The position numbers and the translations under genes were made by a program. Of a stretch of 8,885 nucleotides of DNA, positions 1 to 8,885 are shown piece after piece. The DNA comes from Betaproteobacteria bacterium (lineage in GTDB: Bacteria; Pseudomonadota; Gammaproteobacteria; Burkholderiales; Burkholderiaceae), in contig RFXC01000180.1 of NCBI GenBank assembly GCA_009921765.1, forward strand, positions 1-8,885, given 5' to 3'. How positions within the stretch are numbered: the stretch's first letter is position 1; the number at the start of each line of letters is the position of its first letter. The notes under the pieces are model-generated. The model did no database searches. It was not told the origin of the DNA and saw only the letters and a program-made list of their open reading frames with translations.

Positions 1-494
1 CGGAAAGCGGGCTCGAACCAGGTTTCGCTTGCAGGGAAGGCATGGAGCAGCCGTCGGGGAGACTCGGACCAGGAGGCGGGGGCAGATGCCCGGAGGGCGC
101 CGGCCGGGCGCAGGCGATTCGCCCCCGTCCGCGCGGTATCTGCTGTCTGCACCGCGCCCTCTGCTTTCACCGCCCGCGGTGACCCGTGAAACCGTGCCCA
201 GGCAAGACACCCAGGCTGCGACTCGGTCAGGCGTCTGACCGATCCCGGAGCGACGCATCCGTAGGCAGGCGCCACCCAGCACTGATCATCGATCCGCAAT
301 TCGCCCTCCAGAATCACGAACTCCTCGGCCGCCTCGTAGACCACTGGCTGACTGCGCGACCATCCTGCAGGGAACCGGACAAAGGCCAGAAAATCATCGT
401 TGCCGGAGGGTAGCCGCGCGATGCTGACCGGCCCGGTGCTGTAGGGCATCGGCGCGGCCTGCCAGGCGAGTGCTTGAAAGCTTGACCAGCCCAT
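1..494 (-). CDS. Cupin-like protein, 3' end cut by the window edge
   Basis: The reading frame is open for 164 codons from an ATG at 494 to the left edge, with no stop, so the C-terminus is missing. An in-frame TGA, which is the stop of the preceding hydratase gene, lies nine bases upstream of the ATG and fixes this as the first possible ATG. No strong Shine-Dalgarno sequence is visible. Residues about 36-105 look like a small cupin barrel: residues 57-64 (EEFVILEG) keep the E-x6-G half of cupin motif 1, and P77-Y78-G79 fits the P-x-G turn of motif 2. The metal-binding His-x-His is replaced by P50-x-V52 and the motif 2 histidine is also missing, so a classical metal site is unlikely. Residues 110-150 are rich in Ala, Arg and Pro and look like a linker or low-complexity tail. 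As last visible gene of the operon it is probably co-transcribed with the MaoC pair. Function unknown. The fold assignment is moderately sure. Confidence 0.6.
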   Translation of the reverse strand, partial: MGWSSFQALAWQAAPMPYSTGPVSIARLPSGNDDFLAFVRFPAGWSRSQPVVYEAAEEFVILEGELRIDDQCWVAPAYGCVAPGSVRRLTESQPGCLAWARFHGSPRAVKAEGAVQTADTARTGANRLRPAGALRASAPASWSESPRRLLHAFPASETWFEPAF

Positions 495-503
495 TGCCGC
501 GGA

Positions 504-1001
504 TCAGCGCTTCGCAAACCGAAGGGTGGTGAGCGCCTCGGCAATCAAGCGGTCGCCGCAAAGAAGCCGCTGTGAGAGCTGAACCTGATCGCCCGACGCG
601 AGCGATTCCACCGACCGAACTTCACCCTCTGCGCGCAGCGTATCGCCCGCGAAAGCCATCGAACGCATCTTCAAGCCCATGCCGGAAAGAAAGGCACCCG
701 GTCCCGCCCAGCGCGTGGCGAGCTTGGCGAAGATGGCGCCATATACCTGCCCATCGATCAATACCCCGGGCAGCTTTCGGCTCTTCGCATAGGCAAGGTC
801 ATAGTGGACCCGATGCCAGTCCCAGGTGGCCGCGCCATAGGCGACCAGATCCACCTCGGTGAAACGATGTTCCCAACCGGGGAGCGGAGTGCCAGGCGAG
901 AGCGCGGCGGGATCGACGGTCGGTCGAAGCACCACGCGGGTTGCGCTGGATGGGGCAGGGGAAGCAGGGTTGGTTGTCATCGGTATCGGTGGGTGGTTCA
1001 T
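504..1001 (-). CDS. MaoC-like (R)-specific enoyl-CoA hydratase, catalytic partner
   Basis: This 165-residue protein is a single hot-dog domain of the MaoC/hydratase-2 family, which adds water to 2-enoyl-CoA or removes it from 3-hydroxyacyl-CoA in the cytoplasm. The active-site segment at residues 55-71 (YGAATWDWHRVHYDLAY) carries D61 and H66 in the D-x4-H spacing of the hydratase-2 catalytic pair. It is followed by the usual small-residue turn and a G-x-x-Y helix (LIDGQVYGAIFAKL, 81-94). Residues 1-40 are a Pro/Ala-rich extension without clear similarity. The ATG at 1001 lies six bases after the stop of the MaoC_dehydrat_N gene and has only a weak ribosome binding site; Met8 is a possible alternative start. 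Hot-dog pairs like this often work as heteromers, one subunit catalytic and one structural, and this gene is the catalytic one. The acyl-CoA substrate is unknown. Confidence 0.85.
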   Translation of the reverse strand: MNHPPIPMTTNPASPAPSSATRVVLRPTVDPAALSPGTPLPGWEHRFTEVDLVAYGAATWDWHRVHYDLAYAKSRKLPGVLIDGQVYGAIFAKLATRWAGPGAFLSGMGLKMRSMAFAGDTLRAEGEVRSVESLASGDQVQLSQRLLCGDRLIAEALTTLRFAKR

Positions 1002-1007
1002 GCCGCT

Positions 1008-1508
1008 TCAGCCTGCAGTCCCGAGCGGCTGGATGACCAGCGTCTCGCGATTGGTGGCCACCAGCTTGCCCTCGGCATCGGTATAGCGTGCCACCGATTG
1101 CACGAACAACTGCGTGCCGCCCCGCGACGACGGCTTTTCCACCATGCTTTCCAGGGTCCAGGTGGCCGAGATCCAGTCGCTCGCGAGCACCGGCCGCTCG
1201 AAGCTGTAATCGTTGCCCGCGCGGATCAGGCGGCTGTTGCCGACCGGCAGATGCCAGTCATGGCCGATGTAGCCGTCGGCATCGGGTTGGCGGTCTGCGG
1301 TCTGACAGGTTTCGCAGACCAGCGTGGGCGGCGCAATCACATCGGCGTGGCCGGCGGCGCGCGCGTACGCCTCATCTCGATACACCGGGTTGTCGTCGTC
1401 GATCGCGAGCGCGAAATAGCGGATGGAGGCGCGGCCCATGGGCTCGCGAGCGGGATAGTGAACCTGCTGCCCGATCATGGCACGCAGTTCGTCGGTAAGG
1501 AGCGACAT
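1008..1508 (-). CDS. MaoC_dehydrat_N / FAS1-like dehydratase hot-dog protein, likely non-catalytic partner
   Basis: This 166-residue protein fits the N-terminal MaoC dehydratase family (PF13452, FAS1-like dehydratase). Residues 37-48 (DDDNPVYRDEAY) match the hydratase motif D-x-N-P-x-H, except that the catalytic His is Tyr (Y43), as is common in this non-catalytic family. The loop at 57-63 (VIAPPTL) is also typical. I chose the ATG at 1508 because an AGGAG (1517-1521) sits eight bases upstream. A TTG at 1529 would add seven residues and overlap the Rid stop as TTGA, but it lacks a good ribosome binding site. The protein is expected to dimerise with the hydratase encoded just downstream, giving a hydratase that accepts bulky or branched enoyl-CoA. 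This division of labour is known for related actinobacterial pairs and inferred here. Confidence 0.82.
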   Translation of the reverse strand: MSLLTDELRAMIGQQVHYPAREPMGRASIRYFALAIDDDNPVYRDEAYARAAGHADVIAPPTLVCETCQTADRQPDADGYIGHDWHLPVGNSRLIRAGNDYSFERPVLASDWISATWTLESMVEKPSSRGGTQLFVQSVARYTDAEGKLVATNRETLVIQPLGTAG

Positions 1509-1516
1509 GACGCGGG

Positions 1517-1521
1517 CTCCT
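1517..1521 (-). promoter_or_regulatory. Ribosome binding site that sets the start of the MaoC_dehydrat_N gene
   Basis: AGGAG on the minus strand lies eight bases before the ATG at 1508 and after the TTG at 1529. It favours the shorter protein. Confidence 0.6.
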
Positions 1522-1525
1522 GTGC

Positions 1526-2692
1526 TCAATCCAGAATTGCGAACGGATCGACCTCGATCTGCATCTCGGGCCGCAGCAGCGCCTCGCAGACGAGTCCCGT
1601 GGATGCCGGAAACGGCTGTGACAGCAGCTTTGCGCGCACGCCCGCCACGTCGCGGTAGCGCGGGAGCCCGGCAGGCGTCACGTATTCAATCGTCTTCACC
1701 AGGTGCTGCGGGCCTGCACCGGCTGCCTCCAGCACCTTGATGATGTTGCCGTAGGTGTACTCGGCCTGCGCCACGACATCGCCATCGAACACCACGCGTT
1801 CGGTGGCAGGATCAAGCGACCCCTGCCCCGACATGAAAAGCAGCTTCCCGGCCCGCACGGCGGGGCTGTAGGTGAGCTTCTGATAACGGTCCCAACCCGG
1901 GTTGACCGCCACCGGCAGGTCTCGCGTTGCGATGAAATCGTATTGAACGAGTGCGTCCGGATGACACAGACGCGGCATCAGGATCCCTGCTGCACCTGGA
2001 TACACCGGCCCCAGAAATTGCCGGCGAATTTTGCCGGTCGCCTTGTAACCCGAAAGCCCTGCAGGCAGAAGATAGTCGACCGTTTTGACCACATGGGCGA
2101 AAGACAGCCCGGTGGCCGCCAGCATGCGACCCGCCTTCTCAAAGATTGCCTGCGTCTGTGCGCCGATGTCACCCACGCCAATCACCTTGCCATGATCGTC
2201 GGTGGGCAGCACCGAGGGCAGGAACACCACGCCGGCCGATTCACGCGCCGAGGGCAGGCCGTCGCCAAAGCGTGTTTCCGCCCCCACCGGCCCCGCGGTC
2301 ACCTCGATTTCAAGAAACGCTTCGGGGCGGAGCAGACTTTTCACCGGCACCGTGTGCACGGCGGGGCGATTGGCACCCAACACTTCGGCGCGCACGGCCG
2401 CAGCCTCGGCATAGCGCTCGATACCTTCAGGGCGCAGGTACTCGACCACGCGCACCACATCGCCATAGCCGTAACCCGCGGCCTCGAGAATGGCGCCGAT
2501 TTTTTTCCAGGCGGTACGAACCTGTGTGCTCATGTCGCCGCGCACCACCATGCGCTTGGTCTCGGGGTCGTATTCAGAGGCCGTGTGGCCGGACAGATAC
2601 GCGCCAGCGCCGGCCTTGAGACCTAACGAAAACGAATAGCGCGAGTAGTCGAACCAGGGAAAGTGGGCGGGCTGAATGGCAGTGGGTCTCAA
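1526..2692 (-). CDS. Three-domain Rid-family protein (tandem triplication)
   Basis: The 388-residue protein consists of three Rid (YjgF/YER057c/UK114) units, at about residues 15-133, 147-255 and 270-385. From D53, D175 and D305 the three copies align for 81 residues without a gap, sharing motifs such as VVRVVEYL / VVKTVDYL / LVKTIEYV and GIERYAEAAAVRAEVLG / GLSGYKATGKIRRQFLG / GLPRYRDVAGVRAKLLS. Normal Rid proteins are about 130 residues and form homotrimers with substrate sites between subunits, so this chain could fold as a pseudo-trimer. The RidA catalytic arginine is absent from all copies: the aligned residues are about V112, A234 and S364. RidA-type 2-iminoacid deaminase activity is therefore not predicted. 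The start is a TTG with GAGG (2699-2702) six bases upstream; the preceding gene's TGA is in frame, so no further extension is possible. The gene follows the hydrolase-fold gene by 15 bases. Role unknown; other Rid enzymes include 2-aminomuconate deaminase. Confidence 0.85.
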   Translation of the reverse strand: MRPTAIQPAHFPWFDYSRYSFSLGLKAGAGAYLSGHTASEYDPETKRMVVRGDMSTQVRTAWKKIGAILEAAGYGYGDVVRVVEYLRPEGIERYAEAAAVRAEVLGANRPAVHTVPVKSLLRPEAFLEIEVTAGPVGAETRFGDGLPSARESAGVVFLPSVLPTDDHGKVIGVGDIGAQTQAIFEKAGRMLAATGLSFAHVVKTVDYLLPAGLSGYKATGKIRRQFLGPVYPGAAGILMPRLCHPDALVQYDFIATRDLPVAVNPGWDRYQKLTYSPAVRAGKLLFMSGQGSLDPATERVVFDGDVVAQAEYTYGNIIKVLEAAGAGPQHLVKTIEYVTPAGLPRYRDVAGVRAKLLSQPFPASTGLVCEALLRPEMQIEVDPFAILD

Positions 2693-2707: not shown

Positions 2708-4468
2708 TCAGGGTTGGGTGGGGGCGCAGCAGCCGGGCTGGCACGCACCAGGGGAACAGCATGCGCCCGCCTGGCAGCCGCCGGCGGTGCAGCATGCAGC
2801 AGGCAGACTGTCGAGGAAGCGCAGAATCGTTGCGGCCTTTTGAACCGGCTCGCAGCGCTGTGCGCGCGCGTTGGCCGCTTTGGCGATCGGTTCGATGAGG
2901 TGCGAGGCCAGATCGTTGTGGTCGGCGATCACCATCCGCGGTTGGACGCAGGCCGCGAGTCGGCCGCTCCAGGCATAGTTCACGATGGCGCGCCAGGCCG
3001 GGGCATAGCTTCGCGGCTGCTTCAGCACCTCGCGCGCGCGCTCGGTGAGCGCCTCCGGGTCGAGCCGCGAGGGGCGTGGGCTCTGGAAGGCTTTTTCGCG
3101 ACGAAACCAGGGCCACCAGAGCTCGGCGTCGCGCAGATGGTGCCAGGCGCGCAGCAAATGAAAGCCTTCCGGATCGGGCTCGAGCGAAGGCGCGGGGTGC
3201 GAGCGAAAGAGCGCCCGGTCGGCGTCATTCAGAAAAAAGGGTGAGTCGAGCAGAAGCGATGCCACCCGCTCGGGTCGACCGACAGCGAGCTCCAGCGCCA
3301 CCGCGGCGCCGCCAAGGTGCCCCAGTGCGTGCACCCGCGCAACCGACAGCTGATCCAGCACCGCGATCACCGTATCGGCCCAGGTGGCAACCGTCTGCGG
3401 GTTGCCAGGCAAGGGTTCGGATTCCCCGTGTCCGGGTAGATCGATGGCAATCACCGGCACCGTCTGGCCGATCTCGTTCATGAGTGGTCGGTATAGCCAG
3501 GACGAGCCCGGTGCGTGATGAATGAGAAGAAGCGGTGCGTTGGGGCCATTCAAATCACCGACTGAGCGCACCAGAACCTGTGCGCCATGCAGATCAATGA
3601 ACCGATCGGTGCTGCGGCCGGCAAGCGGTTCGCAGGCTGGCGCCGGAGGCGGCGGCGCAGCGGCTGGGTGGCGCGAAAGCAGTTCGAGTTCCATCTCCGA
3701 GGCCGCCTGGAATTCGCGCGGGACGTCGGCATCCCAGATGCCCGCCGGGTAAAGCGGCCGGGTCTTGTACATGCTGTCACCCGGGCGATTGCCGAAACAC
3801 ACGGGTACCTTCAGATCCGGGATCACCTCAAGTTCACGATGACGGAACGGTGCGCGATAACCGATGCGGTAGTCGTTCCCCGCCTCGAGCATTTCGATCA
3901 CGCCTCGGTGCAGGAACTCGGTGTCGGGCGTGTCAGTGTCGGAACGGTGCGCGTCGTCCTGGGCATTCCAGGGCCAGAACGCATGCTGATCGCGATAGCG
4001 GAACCAAAGGCGCAGCAGATGCGCGCCATCCCAGGCTGGGGTGATGGGTTCAAGGTAGCGCTCGAGCGCTTCGTCGGAATAACGACTCGTGAAGACCGCA
4101 TAGCCGTCAGCGAGCGCCATGGAGCAGCGATCTGGATGACGGGCGGCGAACTCCACGGCAATCGAGGCGCCGGTGTGCCGTCCGTAGCTCGCCACTTTCT
4201 GGATTCCGAGCGCGGTCAGTGTATCGGCCAGCGCATCGGCGAAATCTTCCACGCTGGGCTGCGCAATCGGCAGTTTGTCCGACTGACCAAAACCAGGCAT
4301 GTCGAAAGCGAGGCAGGTGAAGCGCCTTGCAAAGATCTGCATGAGTGGCCGCATGACCTTGGCCGATACCGGGCAAGCGTGCAGCATGGCGACGGCCGGG
4401 CCGCTGCCGGCGCGCAGATAGTGCACGCGGCGCTCGCCTACGGTCACGAAGTGGCGGGTGATTTTCAT
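2708..4468 (-). CDS. Tandem alpha/beta-hydrolase-fold protein with Cys-rich C-terminal tail
   Basis: This 586-residue protein has two alpha/beta-hydrolase domains, about residues 1-265 and 286-556, joined by an Ala/Pro-rich linker (268-279). They are a clear internal duplication: H30/H317, DMPGFGQSD (56-64) and DLPGHGESE (343-351), the nucleophile elbows at G96/G383, and the cap motifs HLLRLWFRYRDQHAFWPW (150-167) and HLLRAWHHLRDAELWWPW (437-454) are all offset by exactly 287 residues. The elbow G-x-S-x-G is G-R-H-T-G in domain 1 and G-H-L-G-G in domain 2, so the nucleophile serine is His98 and Leu385. The end of domain 2 also shows no clear catalytic His. Ordinary serine-hydrolase activity is unlikely for either half. 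Residues 559-581 carry eight cysteines in a CC-x4-C-x4-CC-x4-C-x3-CC arrangement. No signal peptide is seen, so it is presumably cytoplasmic. The ATG follows the dehydrogenase stop by 18 bases with a weak ribosome binding site. Function unknown. Confidence 0.88.
   Translation of the reverse strand: MKITRHFVTVGERRVHYLRAGSGPAVAMLHACPVSAKVMRPLMQIFARRFTCLAFDMPGFGQSDKLPIAQPSVEDFADALADTLTALGIQKVASYGRHTGASIAVEFAARHPDRCSMALADGYAVFTSRYSDEALERYLEPITPAWDGAHLLRLWFRYRDQHAFWPWNAQDDAHRSDTDTPDTEFLHRGVIEMLEAGNDYRIGYRAPFRHRELEVIPDLKVPVCFGNRPGDSMYKTRPLYPAGIWDADVPREFQAASEMELELLSRHPAAAPPPPAPACEPLAGRSTDRFIDLHGAQVLVRSVGDLNGPNAPLLLIHHAPGSSWLYRPLMNEIGQTVPVIAIDLPGHGESEPLPGNPQTVATWADTVIAVLDQLSVARVHALGHLGGAAVALELAVGRPERVASLLLDSPFFLNDADRALFRSHPAPSLEPDPEGFHLLRAWHHLRDAELWWPWFRREKAFQSPRPSRLDPEALTERAREVLKQPRSYAPAWRAIVNYAWSGRLAACVQPRMVIADHNDLASHLIEPIAKAANARAQRCEPVQKAATILRFLDSLPAACCTAGGCQAGACCSPGACQPGCCAPTQP
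2711..2800 (-). other. Coding segment for the Cys-rich tail of the tandem hydrolase-fold protein
   Basis: The last 30 codons (residues 557-586) encode eight Cys, with Gly, Ala, Pro and Gln between them. The spacing is CC-x4-C-x4-CC-x4-C-x3-CC, ending APTQP. It follows the last helix of the second hydrolase domain (ILRFLDSL, 548-555). It resembles a metal-binding or disulfide-rich appendage rather than part of the hydrolase fold. Confidence 0.8.
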
Positions 4469-4486: not shown

Positions 4487-5644
4487 TCAGTAGCTTCGAG
4501 GCAGGCCCAGCCGCTCGCCTACGAAATTGCGCACCATCTCGTTGGAGATCGGGCTGAAGGGGCCGAGCCGGGTGTCTCGGAACAGGCGTTCCATCGGGGT
4601 TTCTTCCACCAGTCCGTAGCCGCCCAGCACCCGCATGCAGCGATCGGTTGCGCGAACGGCTGTCTCGGTGGCGGCGAGCTTGGCCATGGCCGCCTCGGTG
4701 GCGCAGGGCTTGCCGTGGGCGAGCATCCAGGCGGCTTTGGTGGTGAGGAGTCGGATCTGCTCGAGTTCGGTGGCGGTGTCGGCAAGCGGATGCTGCACGG
4801 CCTGGAATCCGCCAATCGGGCGCCCAAAGGCCAGCCGGTCGCGTGCGTACTGCAGCGCCTGGTCGAGCGCCGCGCTGGTAATCCCCACATACATGGCCGC
4901 GCACAGGATGCGCTCTTCATCGAGTGTGGCAAGCAGGTGATACCAGCCGCGGCCGCGCTCGCCCACCACCGCATCGAGCGGTGCCCGCGCATCGTCAAAA
5001 AACACTTCGCAGGTGCAGGCCGCGCGCATGCCCATGAGTTCGAGCCTTCGAACCGTGACCGCCGGCTGATTGCGCGGCGTGAGCACCAGTGAGAGCCCGC
5101 GTGCGCGCTTCGACTCGTCGGGTGTTTCGGTGCGGCAGAGCACGAGGATGGCATCGGCATCATCGGCAAGCGAGGTGTAGAGCTTCTGGCCGCGGACTGT
5201 CCATCCGTCGGCATCGGATTGGGCGCGGGTTTTGAGGGCCAGTACATCGGTGCCACCGCCTGGTTCGCTCATGCCAAAGCCCATCAGGAAATCACCCTGA
5301 ACCAGTTTGGGAAGGTACTCGCGCTTGTGCTCGTCGCTGGCCACTTCAAGAAACAGACGTGCGGTCATGGACGTAAGCAGCCAATCGGTGGCGAGCGACG
5401 GAAAGCGACGCGCGAGCTCCTCACAGAAGATCGATCCCGCCATGATGTCGCTGCCCGCGCCACCATATTCCTCGGGCACGCTGATACCCATCCAGCCCTG
5501 TTGGGCGAACTGCTTCCAGATGCTGCGCGGGATGCGGCGTGCACGGTCGTACTCGCGGATCTTTGCCTCGGGGAGCTCGCGATCGAAAAAATCGCGCACG
5601 CTCTCGCGAAGCAGTTCATGCTCGTGTTGCGATTCGAAATCCAT
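4487..5644 (-). CDS. Acyl-CoA dehydrogenase family flavoprotein
   Basis: The 385-residue protein has the full length and domain order of acyl-CoA dehydrogenases: N-terminal helical domain (1-120), middle beta domain with signature MGFGMSEPGGGTDV (121-134), and C-terminal helical domain with FGRPIGGFQAVQHPLAD (273-289) and VLGGYGLVEETPMERLFRDTRL (339-360). It should use FAD to form a 2-enoyl-CoA and pass electrons to ETF. The usual catalytic glutamate of the IYEGTSE segment is missing: after RDTRL the sequence is GPFSPISNEMVR (361-372), with Pro at the Glu position. Glu244, in LDEER (241-245), falls where isovaleryl-CoA and long-chain dehydrogenases carry their base, so activity is still plausible. 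The ATG overlaps the livG stop by one base (TAATG), with GGGAG at 5652-5656 seven bases upstream. Substrate unknown, possibly the CoA ester of the transported compound. Confidence 0.92.
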   Translation of the reverse strand: MDFESQHEHELLRESVRDFFDRELPEAKIREYDRARRIPRSIWKQFAQQGWMGISVPEEYGGAGSDIMAGSIFCEELARRFPSLATDWLLTSMTARLFLEVASDEHKREYLPKLVQGDFLMGFGMSEPGGGTDVLALKTRAQSDADGWTVRGQKLYTSLADDADAILVLCRTETPDESKRARGLSLVLTPRNQPAVTVRRLELMGMRAACTCEVFFDDARAPLDAVVGERGRGWYHLLATLDEERILCAAMYVGITSAALDQALQYARDRLAFGRPIGGFQAVQHPLADTATELEQIRLLTTKAAWMLAHGKPCATEAAMAKLAATETAVRATDRCMRVLGGYGLVEETPMERLFRDTRLGPFSPISNEMVRNFVGERLGLPRSY

Positions 5645-6417
5645 TACCCGGCTCCCTGTTCGATCACCGCCTCACCCAGATAGACACGCTGCACCTGCTC
5701 GCTGGCGCGAACCTCTTCCGGCTGCCCGGTGATGAGGAGTTTGCCCTGCACCAGCACTGAAATACGCGAGGCCACTGAAAACACCACGGCCATGTCGTGC
5801 TCGGTGAACAGGCAGCTGAGCCCCAGTTCGCTTGCCACCTTGTGCACCATCCGGATGGATTCAAGCCGCTCCTGCGCAGCCATGCCGGCGGTGGGTTCGT
5901 CCAGCAGCAGCAGCCTTGGTTCACCCGCAAGCGTGATCGCCAGCTCCAGGCGTTTACGGTCGCCGTGCGCCAGGGTCGACGCAGGCTGGTGATCCGGCAC
6001 CTGGAGCCCGACGCGTTCCAGCAGCGCACGAGCATCGGCAGGGCGGTGCCCCGAGGCGGCGCGCCAGGGTGCGAGTGTGAGCCGATCATGCGCGAGCAGC
6101 GCCACCTGCACGTTTTCAAGCAGCGTCAGGTCGGGAAACACCCGCGTGATCTGGAAGGTGCGGCCCATGCCCAGCCGCACACGCTGATGCGGCGCAAGCC
6201 CGGCGAGGTCGCGTCCCTCGAACCTCACGCTTCCTGCGTCAGGCGTGATGAGGCCGGTGAGCGTATTGAAAAACGTGCTCTTGCCCGCGCCGTTCGGACC
6301 GATGATGGCGTGAAACTCGCCGCGCCGCACCTGGAGCGTGACGCCCCCCAGTGCCTGCACGCCGCCAAAGCGTTTGGCCACCGACTCCACTGCCAGCACA
6401 TCGGCGTTCAGGTTCAT
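5644..6417 (-). CDS. livG: Branched-chain amino acid-type ABC transporter ATP-binding protein LivG
   Basis: This 257-residue cytoplasmic ATPase powers a HAAT/Liv-type importer. It shows Walker A GPNGAGKST (40-48), Q-loop region GRTFQITRVFPDLTLLENV (85-103), an ABC signature variant LAHGDRKRLELA (149-160, instead of LSGGQ/LSYG-type), Walker B LLLLDEP (169-175) and switch His207 in TEHDMAVVF. The loop between Q-loop and signature and the C-terminal extension are of LivG type rather than LivF type. The ATG overlaps the livM stop as ATGA (6414-6417) and is preceded by a perfect AGGAGG (6423-6428) five bases upstream. LivG normally pairs with a second ATPase, LivF, whose gene does not follow here; an acyl-CoA dehydrogenase gene does. 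The transported substrate may be an organic acid or amide rather than an amino acid. Confidence 0.93.
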   Translation of the reverse strand: MNLNADVLAVESVAKRFGGVQALGGVTLQVRRGEFHAIIGPNGAGKSTFFNTLTGLITPDAGSVRFEGRDLAGLAPHQRVRLGMGRTFQITRVFPDLTLLENVQVALLAHDRLTLAPWRAASGHRPADARALLERVGLQVPDHQPASTLAHGDRKRLELAITLAGEPRLLLLDEPTAGMAAQERLESIRMVHKVASELGLSCLFTEHDMAVVFSVASRISVLVQGKLLITGQPEEVRASEQVQRVYLGEAVIEQGAG

Positions 6418-7334
6418 GGACGCCTCCTGGCAAGGAGGCCCGCGAGGCCGCGCGGCATCCCCAGCACCAGCAGCATGATGATGAGCCCCATGAACAGCGG
6501 CCAGTATTCGGTGCTGCCGCTGATGGTGACCTCGAGCACGACATAGACCGCCGCCCCGAGCGCGGGCCCGAGGAAGCTCTGCACACCGCCCAGCACGGCC
6601 ATCACGATCGGCGTGGCGGAGGCCGTCCAGTTGAGCCAGCCCGGGAACACGTTGCCTGAGGAAAATGCAAACAGCGCGCCCGCAAGCCCGGCGAAGGCGC
6701 CGGCGATCACGAAGGTGATGAGCTGGTGGCCTCGCACATCGACACCGGAATACTGGACCCGAAGCGGGTTGTTGCGAAGCGCCCTCAGCGTCAGTCCGAA
6801 AGGCGAGCGTACCAGCCTGTGCAGCAGATAAACCGACGGCAACACCCAGGCGAGCGCGAAGTAATAGTAGTTTGCCGGCACGGCGAGCGCGCCGGGCGGG
6901 CGCAGCCCCGTGAGACCGTCGTCGCCCCCCGTGAGGCCGATGGCCTTGAGCGCAACGGTATAGAGCAGCATCTGGAAGGCGAAGGTGAGCATGGCGAAAT
7001 AGATGCCCGAGCGCCTGACCGAGAAAAATCCGATGGCAACCGCAACCAGTGCAGCCGCCGCCATGGCGCCCGGCATCACCAGCATGAACGCACCGAGCGA
7101 GCTGAGCCCAGCTTTTTTGACCAGCAAGCCGCCGGCATAGGCGCCAACCCCGAAAAAGGCTGCGTGACCGAATGACAGCATGCCGCCGTATCCCATCAGC
7201 AGGTTGAAACTGATGGCGTAGAGCGCGAACGCGAGCACTTCAATCGCAATGAAGATCCAGAAATCCGACAACCCGAGCGGCAACACCAGCAAGGCCGCCA
7301 CCAGCGCGAGGAGACCGATGCGTGCGCCGCTCAC
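6414..7334 (-). CDS. livM: Branched-chain amino acid-type ABC transporter permease LivM
   Basis: This inner-membrane permease of about 306 residues has many hydrophobic segments, beginning at residues 6-22 and 24-42, and the LivM hallmark SFNLLMGYGGMLSFGHAAFF (42-61). The cytoplasmic coupling loop is RSPFGLTLRALRNNPLRVQYSGVD (176-199), followed by membrane segments at about 205-225 and 240-270. The frame is open upstream to an ATG at 7436, but that stretch overlaps livH and encodes a hydrophilic, unrelated sequence. I therefore choose the GTG at 7334, which overlaps the livH stop as GTGA (7331-7334) and has GGGAG (7341-7345) six bases upstream. The resulting length and N-terminus fit the family. 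It should form a heterodimeric pore with LivH and couple to LivG. Confidence 0.92.
   Translation of the reverse strand: MSGARIGLLALVAALLVLPLGLSDFWIFIAIEVLAFALYAISFNLLMGYGGMLSFGHAAFFGVGAYAGGLLVKKAGLSSLGAFMLVMPGAMAAAALVAVAIGFFSVRRSGIYFAMLTFAFQMLLYTVALKAIGLTGGDDGLTGLRPPGALAVPANYYYFALAWVLPSVYLLHRLVRSPFGLTLRALRNNPLRVQYSGVDVRGHQLITFVIAGAFAGLAGALFAFSSGNVFPGWLNWTASATPIVMAVLGGVQSFLGPALGAAVYVVLEVTISGSTEYWPLFMGLIIMLLVLGMPRGLAGLLARRRP
6423..6428 (-). promoter_or_regulatory. Ribosome binding site for livG
   Basis: A consensus AGGAGG on the minus strand lies in the last codons of livM, five bases before the livG ATG. It is the strongest ribosome binding site in the operon and suggests high translation of the ATPase gene. 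Confidence 0.75.
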
Positions 7335-8254
7335 TCCTGGCTCCCAAAGAGGCCCCAGGGCCTGACGATCAGGACCACCGCCATGCAGACAAAGGTCAGC
7401 ACAACCGACCAGCCTGGCAGGGCCAGCACCCCCCATGCGTTGACGATTCCCACGAGCAACGAGGCGACCAGTGCGCCCAACACGCTGCCCATGCCACCGA
7501 TCACCACGACCACGAAGGCATCGATGATCACCTGCACGTGCAGACCGGGGCCGACCGACACGATGGGCGCGGCGAGCGCCCCGCCCAGACCCGCGAGCGC
7601 AACGCCCAGCGCGAACACCGTGGTGAACAGCCGCCGCGTGTCGGTACCGAGCGCGCCCAGCATGTCGCGGTCATTGGTGGCCGCGCGGATCAGGATGCCC
7701 CAGCGCGTCCGGTGCAGCAACCACCAGAGGCCCGCCGCCACCAGAAGCCCCACTGCGATCAGGAACAGCCGATAGGTGGGAAACACCAGGCCCATCGCCT
7801 GGGTGGATCCTGCGAGGAGTTCGGGCATGGGGGTGGACTGGTCTTCCCGTCCCCAGATGAGCTTCACCACATCGCCCGCGATGAAGACCAGCGCGAAGGT
7901 GAGGAGCAACTGAAATTCATGCGGCGCTCGATAGATTCGCCGCAGGAGCGTGATTTCGATGATTCCCCCGACGATCGCGAGAATCAACGCCGCTGCCGCC
8001 AACGCTGCGAAGAATCCGACGCTGCTGCCACCAGCCCAGGTGCCAACCGTCCAGGCGATGAATGCGCCCACCATGAAGAGCGCACCGTGTGCGAAGTTGA
8101 GCACCCGCAGCACGCCAAAGATCAGCGTGAGCCCGGCCGAGATCAGGAACAGCAGCATGCCGTTGGAAATGCCGGCGAGCGTCTGGCGAGCCAACACCAC
8201 CGGGTTGGTCATCCAGGCAAGGTGCTGGGCGAAAAATTCGGCGAGCTCGGTCAT
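7331..8254 (-). CDS. livH: Branched-chain amino acid-type ABC transporter permease LivH
   Basis: This 307-residue inner-membrane permease carries the LivH hallmark SAGLTLIFGVLRVLNFAHGA (39-58), further membrane segments at about 60-73, 82-104, 115-133 and 162-180, the coupling loop WGILIRAATNDRDMLGALGTD (185-205), and the terminal segments VVVVIGGMGSVLGALVASLL (248-267) and VVLTFVCMAVVLIVRPWGLF (284-303). It is the first gene of the minus-strand operon. An in-frame TAA twelve bases upstream limits the start to the ATG at 8254 or Met15 at 8212. Neither has a strong Shine-Dalgarno sequence; the upstream one gives an N-terminus somewhat longer than usual for the family. It partners LivM and receives substrate from the binding protein encoded divergently. 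Confidence 0.93.
   Translation of the reverse strand: MTELAEFFAQHLAWMTNPVVLARQTLAGISNGMLLFLISAGLTLIFGVLRVLNFAHGALFMVGAFIAWTVGTWAGGSSVGFFAALAAAALILAIVGGIIEITLLRRIYRAPHEFQLLLTFALVFIAGDVVKLIWGREDQSTPMPELLAGSTQAMGLVFPTYRLFLIAVGLLVAAGLWWLLHRTRWGILIRAATNDRDMLGALGTDTRRLFTTVFALGVALAGLGGALAAPIVSVGPGLHVQVIIDAFVVVVIGGMGSVLGALVASLLVGIVNAWGVLALPGWSVVLTFVCMAVVLIVRPWGLFGSQE
7341..7345 (-). promoter_or_regulatory. Ribosome binding site for the livM GTG start
   Basis: GGGAG on the minus strand lies inside the end of livH, six bases before the GTG at 7334. It supports that start over the ATG at 7436. Confidence 0.6.
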
Positions 8255-8462: not shown

Positions 8463-8885
8463 GTGGCGATTACCGATCGACGTTCGGTTCTGCTTTCCGT
8501 CGGCACAGCGCTCGCAATTGCCGCAGCGCCAGCCTTTTCGCAGAACGCACCCCGTGGAGAGCCCATCAAGCTGGGGCTTATTGACATTTATAGCGGGGGC
8601 TTTGCCTTCATCGCCGATTCCATCCGCACCGGCTACCAGATTGCCGTGGATGAGGCCAATGCGGCGGGCGGCCTCAACGGCCGGCCGTTCCAGCTGGTGA
8701 CCGCCGATATGGGCGCACAGGTGGAGAAGGCGGTGACCGAGGGGCGCCGCATGATGCTGGAAGAAAAAATCCGTTACGTGACCGTAGGTATTCACAGCGG
8801 CGCAGCGGTCGCGGTGGGCAACCTGGGCCGCGAGCACAAGGCGCTGGTGGTCGGTGGCTTTGCCACCACCAAGCGGCTGACCGGC
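8463..8885 (+). CDS. Periplasmic substrate-binding protein of the Liv-type transporter, 3' end cut by the window edge
   Basis: The frame runs 141 codons from a GTG at 8463 to the right edge without a stop. AGGAGA (8452-8457) lies five bases before the GTG. Residues 1-26 form an export signal: RR at 6-7, hydrophobic core LLSVGTALAIAAAPA (10-24), and likely cleavage after Ala24 or Ser26. The twin arginine followed by S-V-L-L resembles a Tat signal, but a Sec signal is equally possible. The mature part begins with IKLGLIDIYSGGFAFI, then GYQIAVDEANAAGGLNGRP and an ADMGAQVEKAVTEGRRM helix, the classical start of the Leu/Ile/Val-binding type I periplasmic family (Peripla_BP_6). It is transcribed divergently from livHMG and most likely delivers the ligand to that transporter. 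The ligand is not predictable from this part. Confidence 0.92.
   Translation, partial: MAITDRRSVLLSVGTALAIAAAPAFSQNAPRGEPIKLGLIDIYSGGFAFIADSIRTGYQIAVDEANAAGGLNGRPFQLVTADMGAQVEKAVTEGRRMMLEEKIRYVTVGIHSGAAVAVGNLGREHKALVVGGFATTKRLTG

What the first reader, a model, noticed from the sequence alone, without database searches (positions are those of the whole stretch)
2708..4468. Duplicated alpha/beta-hydrolase protein that lost the nucleophile serine in both halves
The two halves align at a constant offset of 287 residues from the oxyanion-loop histidine (H30/H317) to the cap motif (HLLR-x-W ... RD ... WPW at 150-167 and 437-454). Yet G-x-S-x-G is GRHTG in one half and GHLGG in the other. Keeping the cap motif while losing the nucleophile twice, with a different residue each time, suggests selection for binding or a non-serine mechanism rather than simple decay. 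Domain 1 could use His98; domain 2 could be structural or ligand-binding.
Basis: partly seen in the sequence, partly recalled or inferred. Interest (0 to 1): 0.75.

Follow-up and report, generated by a model that had tools for sequence, protein, structure and literature searches.

The report
Double hydrolase with histidine catalytic elbow
A bacterial enzyme-like protein is made of two fused copies of a very common enzyme fold, in which one copy has an invariant histidine where such enzymes normally carry serine and the other copy has lost that residue, and many relatives share this, so it looks like a conserved and little-studied design rather than a broken gene.

Summary
In detail: on the minus strand (4468..2708), 586 aa, two alpha/beta-hydrolase halves (31% identical over 207 residues) with H98 and L385 at the nucleophile positions. 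It is not decay: H98 is invariant in 121 of 121 aligned sequences and present in 267 of 272 two-domain rows (found with His-type queries). Position 385 is N 95, Q 20, G 3, L 2, S 1 of 121. His elbows also occur in single-domain relatives. Asp231 at the acid position is kept in 267 of 267 H98 rows. The His normally carried after strand 8 is missing in the window protein, but two sister lineages have a His close by. The halves did not simply lose serine twice: one homologue has His in both halves, one locus has two adjacent unfused His genes. In a 450-aa lineage the second half has lost its elbow yet keeps cap residues W442, R446, W454 in 50 of 50 rows. Best reading: the first half works as a non-serine enzyme using His98 with Asp231, the second is a non-catalytic cap donor, in a conserved catabolic operon. 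Contacts, chemistry and substrate are not shown. New variant of a known fold.

The parts
2708..4468 (-). 586-aa fused double alpha/beta-hydrolase gene (the subject)
3632..4468 (-). first half, residues 1-279, putative catalytic unit with His elbow
   Evidence: 116 columns with >=118/121 identity lie in residues 1-275 against 43 in the rest; fold:
4166..4186 (-). elbow 1, residues 95-101 YGRHTGA
   Evidence: each residue invariant in 121 of 121
4175..4177 (-). His98 codon, nucleophile position
   Evidence: 121 of 121; 267 of 272
3776..3778 (-). Asp231 codon, catalytic-acid position after strand 223-227
   Evidence: 121 of 121; 269 of 272; model
4379..4381 (-). His30 codon, oxyanion-loop position
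   Evidence: 120 of 121; 261 of 272
3968..4021 (-). cap motif 1, residues 150-167
   Evidence: W155, R157, W167 in 269, 268, 270 of 272
2795..3616 (-). second half, residues 285-558, alpha/beta-hydrolase fold without nucleophile
3308..3322 (-). elbow 2, residues 383-387 GHLGG, Leu385 at nucleophile position
   Evidence: pos 385 N95 Q20 G3 L2 S1 of 121; H384 121 of 121
3107..3160 (-). cap motif 2, residues 437-454, with R446
   Evidence: R446 270, W442 263, W454 260 of 272; 50 of 50 where the elbow is deleted
2711..2794 (-). C-terminal Cys-rich tail, residues 559-586, low confidence in the model
   Evidence: pLDDT under 50; 8 Cys in 28 residues
4487..5644 (-). acyl-CoA dehydrogenase, upstream operon neighbour
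1526..2692 (-). three-repeat RidA-family protein, downstream neighbour
1008..1529 (-). FAS1_DH-type hydratase subunit
504..1001 (-). MaoC-like hydratase subunit
5644..8254 (-). branched-chain-amino-acid-type ABC transporter: LivG-like 5644-6417, LivM-like 6414-7436, LivH-like 7331-8254
8463..8885 (+). start of divergent periplasmic binding protein gene, cut by window end
   Evidence: 98.6% over 141 aa to the Peripla_BP_6 protein of L001

Best explanation
This is a working enzyme, not a pseudoenzyme: a covalent pseudo-dimer of two alpha/beta-hydrolase domains from a group whose nucleophile elbow carries histidine. The first half is the catalytic unit. His98 on the elbow and Asp231 behind strand 7 form a dyad that does the acid-base work; in the window protein the loop after strand 8 that normally brings a His has none (residues 249-252, VPRE). 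The second half has no nucleophile and acts through its cap (W442, R446, W454), which I propose closes over the first half and helps bind a carboxylate or CoA-linked substrate. The protein serves a catabolic operon with an importer, an acyl-CoA dehydrogenase and MaoC-type hydratases, and in relatives an AMP-forming ligase. Shown: fold, positions of H98/L385/D231, conservation, absence of the strand-8-loop His here, reduction of the second half with cap kept in one lineage, operon order. Inferred: that H98 and D231 touch, that the second cap reaches the first active site, the chemistry (general-base water attack or C-C/C-O cleavage), the substrate.
For: H98 121/121, 267/272; all 267 H98 rows have D231 (271 rows). 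In a looser set with letters at both columns, His pairs with D 58, E 4, N 2 and Ala with S 2, F 2, D 1. AF2 model places them at elbow and strand-7 end. Purifying selection in both halves. Second-half cap W442, R446, W454 kept 50/50 where its elbow is deleted; the model of that lineage (pLDDT 95.0, pTM 0.93) shows strands 1-4 plus cap helices left in the second half. Operon order in L001-L007 and L009 as far as contigs reach; AMP ligase in L003 and L006. His-Asp base catalysis without a needed nucleophile is known in this fold (HOD, PMC10548524, passages).
Against: Conservation would also fit a binding protein. Sister lineages have a His at the start of the last helix, near where a distal His could act: 45 rows of the GFHSG type at column 256 and 37 rows at column 257, among them 20 of the GMHTG type and 13 of the GFHSG type; so the distal His may be moved, not lost, there. 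In the window's own family the second half also keeps H384 (121/121), D519 (120/121) and H523 (113/121), which a mere cap donor need not keep. The 50 elbow-less rows are one lineage, not 50 events. The His/acid coupling rests on few Ala lineages, and one of them (L082) keeps the Asp. In HOD the base His comes from the strand-8 loop, so the analogy is of chemistry only. Rare members have Ala, Asp or Tyr at the elbow. The rows were collected with His-type queries, which favours His.
Confidence: 0.5

Rival explanations
1. Non-catalytic ligand-binding or scaffold protein: both halves are pseudoenzymes that bind a pathway intermediate or hold other operon enzymes together.
For: Neither half of the window protein has Ser/Asp/Cys at the elbow or a His in the strand-8 loop; inactive alpha/beta-hydrolase proteins are known (DPP10, PMC4350108, start of abstract seen); aromatic cap residues suit binding; second half keeps H384, D519, H523.
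Against: Near-absolute retention of His and acid in the first half, and His elbows in single-domain relatives, is unexpected for pure binding; the second half, which would do for binding, is the variable one.
Confidence: 0.23
2. His98 is a true covalent nucleophile (acyl- or alkyl-imidazole intermediate), a further elbow-nucleophile class beside Ser, Cys and Asp.
For: His sits at the nucleophile position with the acid and the oxyanion-loop His30 kept; in sister lineages a His near the last helix could activate it.
Against: In the window protein no second His is seen that could activate it; acyl-imidazoles are labile (general knowledge). A base role is simpler.
Confidence: 0.14
3. The conserved histidines (H30, H98, H150, H162) bind a metal ion and the protein is a metallo-hydrolase.
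For: H30 120, H98 121, H150 121, H162 121 of 121.
Against: H162 is His in only 164 of 272 two-domain rows; H30 and H98 hold classical loop positions; no metal site was tested.
Confidence: 0.08
4. Recent decay: a mutated serine hydrolase in one organism.
For: None beyond the missing serine.
Against: 0 of 121 rows have Ser at 98; dN/dS far below 1; a 98% identical database protein exists.
Confidence: 0.01

Closest known systems
Canonical alpha/beta-hydrolases with Ser-His-Asp triad (Pfam PF00561; esterases, chloroperoxidases, enol-lactonases)
   Same: Fold of both halves, elbow, acid after strand 7, His in the oxyanion loop, cap motif region
   Different: His instead of Ser at elbow 1; Leu/Asn/Gln/Gly or deletion at elbow 2; no His in the strand-8 loop of the window protein
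Cofactor-free dioxygenases of the HOD type and carboxy-lyase-type members that run on a His-acid dyad (PMC10548524 passages; PMC11878206 section 2.7)
   Same: Catalysis proposed without an elbow nucleophile, by His-Asp base
   Different: There the His is the strand-8-loop His and the elbow is Ser or Ala; here the His is on the elbow
RutD with RutC (pyrimidine utilisation operon)
   Same: alpha/beta-hydrolase-like protein (RutD fold recalled, and TIGR03611 match) encoded beside a RidA-family protein in a catabolic operon
   Different: TIGR03611 score 71.4 against cut-off 238.5; the neighbouring RidA repeats appear to lack the Arg that RutC has; other operon genes differ
Haloalkane dehalogenases / epoxide hydrolases
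   Same: Among the best sequence and Foldseek neighbours of the halves; one source names several relatives haloalkane dehalogenase
   Different: Those use Asp at the elbow with a distal His (PMC11878206 for epoxide hydrolases; dehalogenases recalled); NF002938 106 bits against cut-off 241
CGI-58 and DPP10, members without the catalytic serine
   Same: Missing elbow nucleophile
   Different: No conserved His in place of Ser that I know of (recalled); human proteins, not bacterial fusions

Membership tests
alpha/beta-hydrolase fold superfamily | Fold with central sheet, elbow between strand 5 and helix C | tested here: met
alpha/beta-hydrolase fold superfamily | Ser/Cys/Asp at the elbow | tested here: not met
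   His98 and Leu385
alpha/beta-hydrolase fold superfamily | Acid after strand 7 (or 6) | tested here: met
   D231 121/121; D519 120/121
alpha/beta-hydrolase fold superfamily | Catalytic His in loop after strand 8 | tested here: not met
   window protein: loop 249-252 VPRE and residue 540 hold no His; 10 of 121 close rows have any His in 249-256. Sister lineages do have His at 256 or 257, so this is not a trait of the whole group
Haloalkane dehalogenase (NF002938) | Family score and Asp nucleophile | tested here: not met
   106 vs 241 bits; no Asp at either elbow
RutD (TIGR03611) | Family score | tested here: not met
   71.4 vs 238.5 bits
Ndr family (PF03096) | Family score | tested here: inconclusive
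   56.2 vs 23.3 bits but best stretch covers profile 47-129 of 283 only
His-Asp dyad members (HOD type) | Base His from strand-8 loop paired with acid, nucleophile dispensable | tested here: not met
   no His in that loop of the window protein; whether it works like one is left open
His-elbow (G-x-H-T/S-G) group described here | His at the elbow of at least one half, acid kept | tested here: met

The most novel reading that the evidence does not exclude
A separate catalytic class of alpha/beta-hydrolases in which the elbow residue and the distal His of the triad have been merged into one elbow histidine, and in which gene fusion let the second copy shed its catalytic core and survive as a dedicated cap that completes the first copy's active site (R446 acting across the pseudo-dimer).
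Probability: 0.3. Interest if true: 0.8.

Novelty: new variant of a known kind. Interest (0 to 1): 0.6.

Why it matters
A 2024 survey of the superfamily (PMC11878206; section 2.7 read, passages) says that the elbow carries serine, with Asp, Cys and serine-less variants, and calls the strand-8 His totally conserved. A group with His on the elbow, and in the window's family none in that loop, fits neither statement. If it is catalytic, naming such proteins as esterases or haloalkane dehalogenases is misleading, and the series from His in both halves to His in one half to a second half without elbow gives a case of how a fused duplicate may turn into a structural part.

Tried and rejected
Decay: rejected. 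Independent double loss from Ser: disfavoured because of L075 and L101 and the tree, where 18 sampled relatives without His elbow (13 Ser, 3 Ala, 1 Asp, 1 Gly) lie on one side of one branch (79/98; 75% of 200 bootstrap trees) and the halves and single His proteins on the other. That branch is below the tool's starred level, second halves have long branches, the bootstrap had not settled and second halves do not form one clade, so this is support, not proof. Three fetched relatives (L042, L043, L046) were left out of the tree. Metal site: no positive evidence, not tested. RutD assignment: below cut-off. Solved His-elbow structure: a profile search of PDB sequences matched 445 distinct sequences, 60 listed; 5 alignments were printed and show S, S, D, D, D at the elbow; the rest were not inspected. 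Full-length match in the PDB: in the 50 rows shown no TM-score on the query above 0.36. Literature, one open-access library: (GXHXG and four spellings) 0 papers; some searches gave lists in whose titles and abstract starts I saw no His elbow or such fusion; one search gave 0; the one paper (PMC9105624) was checked by passages and concerns another residue in SGNH esterases; RutD searches.

Weak points and mends: my pattern missed L076, which has GFHTG. One row (L039_two) was translated out of frame and is dropped (271 rows). In one search, 8 of 121 rows lacked the motif: P0151 has His in YERHTG, P0162 has Tyr, P0158 starts after it, five have no letters there. Genome samples (4 of 185, 22 of 289, 6 of 274 genomes at E <= 1e-20, 1e-30, 1e-30) capped the candidates scored per genome, so are lower bounds, and the samples share genomes. 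Several loci of L062-L100 overlap. Neighbour queries came partly from the same loci.

Full report
What is there. The reported stretch codes, on the minus strand, for a 586-residue protein. Pfam finds two Abhydrolase_1 stretches. At the nucleophile elbow the first half reads G96-R-H98-T-G100 and the second G383-H-L385-G-G387. An AlphaFold2 model built on 119 aligned sequences (mean pLDDT 91.5, pTM 0.89) places H98 and L385 in the one-residue turn between strand and helix in each half. Asp231 follows strand 223-227. The loop between the last strand (246-248) and the last helix (253-265) is V249-P-R-E252, without the histidine that canonical members carry there; in the second half only residue 540 (Glu) separates strand and helix.

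It is conserved. A search of 5.8 billion proteins gave 483 hits, 120 listed. In the alignment of those with the window protein (121 rows) residues 95-101 YGRHTGA and D231 are invariant, and position 385 is N 95, Q 20, G 3, L 2, S 1. The first half (residues 1-275) has 116 columns in which at least 118 rows match the window protein, the rest 43. Against L001-L003, dN/dS of the window gene is 0.025-0.031 in half 1, 0.065-0.086 in half 2 and 0.087-0.150 in the tail; L001 against L003 gives 0.035, 0.122 and 0.139 (synonymous distances 0.4-1.5). Decay is excluded.

It belongs to a wider group. A search with first halves only (796 hits, 120 listed) shows G-x-H-[TS]-G in 113 of 121 rows, window included; of the other 8, one has His in a slightly different motif, one has Tyr and six have no letters at the spot. 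Besides the window type there are proteins of about 440-480 residues (GFHSG, GFHTG; some named esterase or haloalkane dehalogenase by a source) and single-domain proteins. Annotated plasmids carry single-domain forms with His elbows in Comamonas, Variovorax, Antarctobacter and Streptomyces, Shinella and Novosphingobium. Among 272 two-domain rows, His98 is present in 267; the others are P0277 (Asp), L037 (Ala), L019 (His in the second half instead), P0160 (gap) and one mis-framed row. In the 39 loci L062-L100, several of which overlap, 35 have His at the elbow (34 HTG, one HAG) and 4 have Ala. All 267 rows with H98 have D231; L037 has Ala98 and Ser231. In a looser set with letters at both columns, His pairs with D 58, E 4, N 2 and Ala with S 2, F 2, D 1. 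The Ala cases are few and partly related, so the coupling is suggestive only.

The distal histidine. In the window's own family 10 of 121 rows have any His in residues 249-256. In sister lineages it is different: 45 rows, all of the GFHSG type, have His at column 256, and 37 rows have His at column 257, 20 of them of the GMHTG type and 13 of the GFHSG type; in all 106 of 271 rows have some His in columns 244-258. These fall at the start of the last helix (compare the P0184 model). So the distal His is absent here but may be shifted rather than lost elsewhere in the group. Among the 15 rows, L034 keeps a canonical-looking GH.

History. L075 codes for a two-domain protein with GTHTG in the first and GEHTG in the second half; L101 has two adjacent separate genes, both GHHTG. 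In a tree of 74 half- and single-domain sequences first halves form one supported group with two single-domain proteins inside (98/94); 18 relatives without His elbow (13 Ser, 3 Ala, 1 Asp, 1 Gly) lie on one side of one branch (79/98). Second halves are not one clade and have long branches. A His-elbow ancestor for both halves, with the His lost in most second halves, is the simplest account; a Ser-type source for some second halves is not excluded.

What the second half does. In 50 of 271 rows, one lineage, the second elbow is deleted, yet W442, R446 and W454 of the second cap are present in 50 of 50; in the whole set R446 is 270, W442 263 and W454 260 of 272. A model of one such protein, P0184 (458 aa, 59 sequences, pLDDT 95.0, pTM 0.93), shows that the second half keeps strands 1-4 and the cap helices but has lost the strand-5/elbow/helix-C segment apart from a two-residue trace, and the last strands. 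A domain that drops its active-site core but not its cap most likely serves through the cap. Against this, the second half of the window's own family still keeps H384 (121/121), D519 (120/121) and H523 (113/121), which may mean a remaining role there. That the cap closes the first half's pocket is inference; I could not read coordinates.

Setting. The gene lies 18 and 15 bases from its neighbours in a run LivH-LivM-LivG, acyl-CoA dehydrogenase, this gene, three-repeat RidA-family protein, FAS1_DH-type subunit, MaoC subunit. The order recurs in L001, L002, L005 and L006 (in L005 with a cupin-like gene, and in L006 with a further stretch, between LivG and the dehydrogenase) and as far as the contigs reach in L003, L004, L007 and L009; the more distant L008 has other neighbours. 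A divergent periplasmic binding protein starts at 8463 (98.6% identical to that of L001), a second ABC ATPase lies beyond it in L001, and an AMP-forming ligase follows the cluster in L003 and L006. Among 32 loci of the wider group, a relative of a FAD_binding_4 oxidoreductase is found in 9, AMP ligase in 5, acyl-CoA dehydrogenase in 5, Amidohydro_2 in 4, some of these being source loci of the queries. Catabolism of an imported carboxylate through CoA esters is my reading; the substrate is unknown.

Mechanism. Canonical members need Ser, Cys or Asp at the elbow, an acid and a His after strand 8. HOD shows that a His-Asp pair can act as base without the nucleophile (PMC10548524, passages). Here a His stands at the elbow with the acid kept, so the likeliest catalyst is an elbow His-Asp dyad acting as general base, with His30 near the oxyanion site. 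A covalent His nucleophile, a binding-only protein and a metal site are rivals. A 2024 survey of the superfamily (PMC11878206, section 2.7 read, other passages) lists S, D, C and serine-less variants and no His elbow; my searches of an open-access library showed none in what I saw.

Verdict. Observation confirmed, interpretation partly supported and extended: a conserved, apparently undescribed variant of the alpha/beta-hydrolase active site in fused double-domain proteins. No chemistry has been shown.

Noticed in passing
window 2711-2794 (-): C-terminal tail of the protein is Cys-rich (8 Cys in 28 residues), low confidence in the model; a similar tail is seen in P0002-P0005 and P0010 among the 35 rows whose ends were printed.
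   Followed up: partly
window 1526-2692 (-): Downstream gene is a RidA-family protein with three tandem repeats in one chain (RidA is a trimer by recall); at the place of the catalytic Arg105 the repeats appear to hold V, A and S (my alignment to a recalled motif), as in the Rid4-7 subfamilies that lack it (PMC8113886, PMC4433059, passages).
   Followed up: partly
window 3-494 (-): Partial gene, 55% identical to a 209-aa protein of L003 that weakly resembles Cupin_7 (6.1e-5, below cut-off); cupin-like genes also lie near His-elbow proteins in L005 and L018, L023, L113.
   Followed up: partly
L019 8608-10227: Azospirillum two-domain relative has the order reversed: degenerate first half (FDLAG) and His elbow (GTHTG) in the second half.
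   Followed up: partly
P0277; P0162: Relatives with Asp (YGLDTGA) or Tyr (YGSYTGA) at elbow 1.
   Followed up: no
L049, L051, L054: A single-domain group in the relatives' genomes has GQATG, Ala at the nucleophile position.
   Followed up: no
L083/L102: Two adjacent single-domain genes (stop-to-stop 299 and 318 aa) both with GEAVG elbows; an unfused pair without nucleophile.
   Followed up: no
L063, L085, L109, L110: Some alphaproteobacterial genomes show up to eight matches (as many as were scored) and two-domain genes side by side.
   Followed up: no
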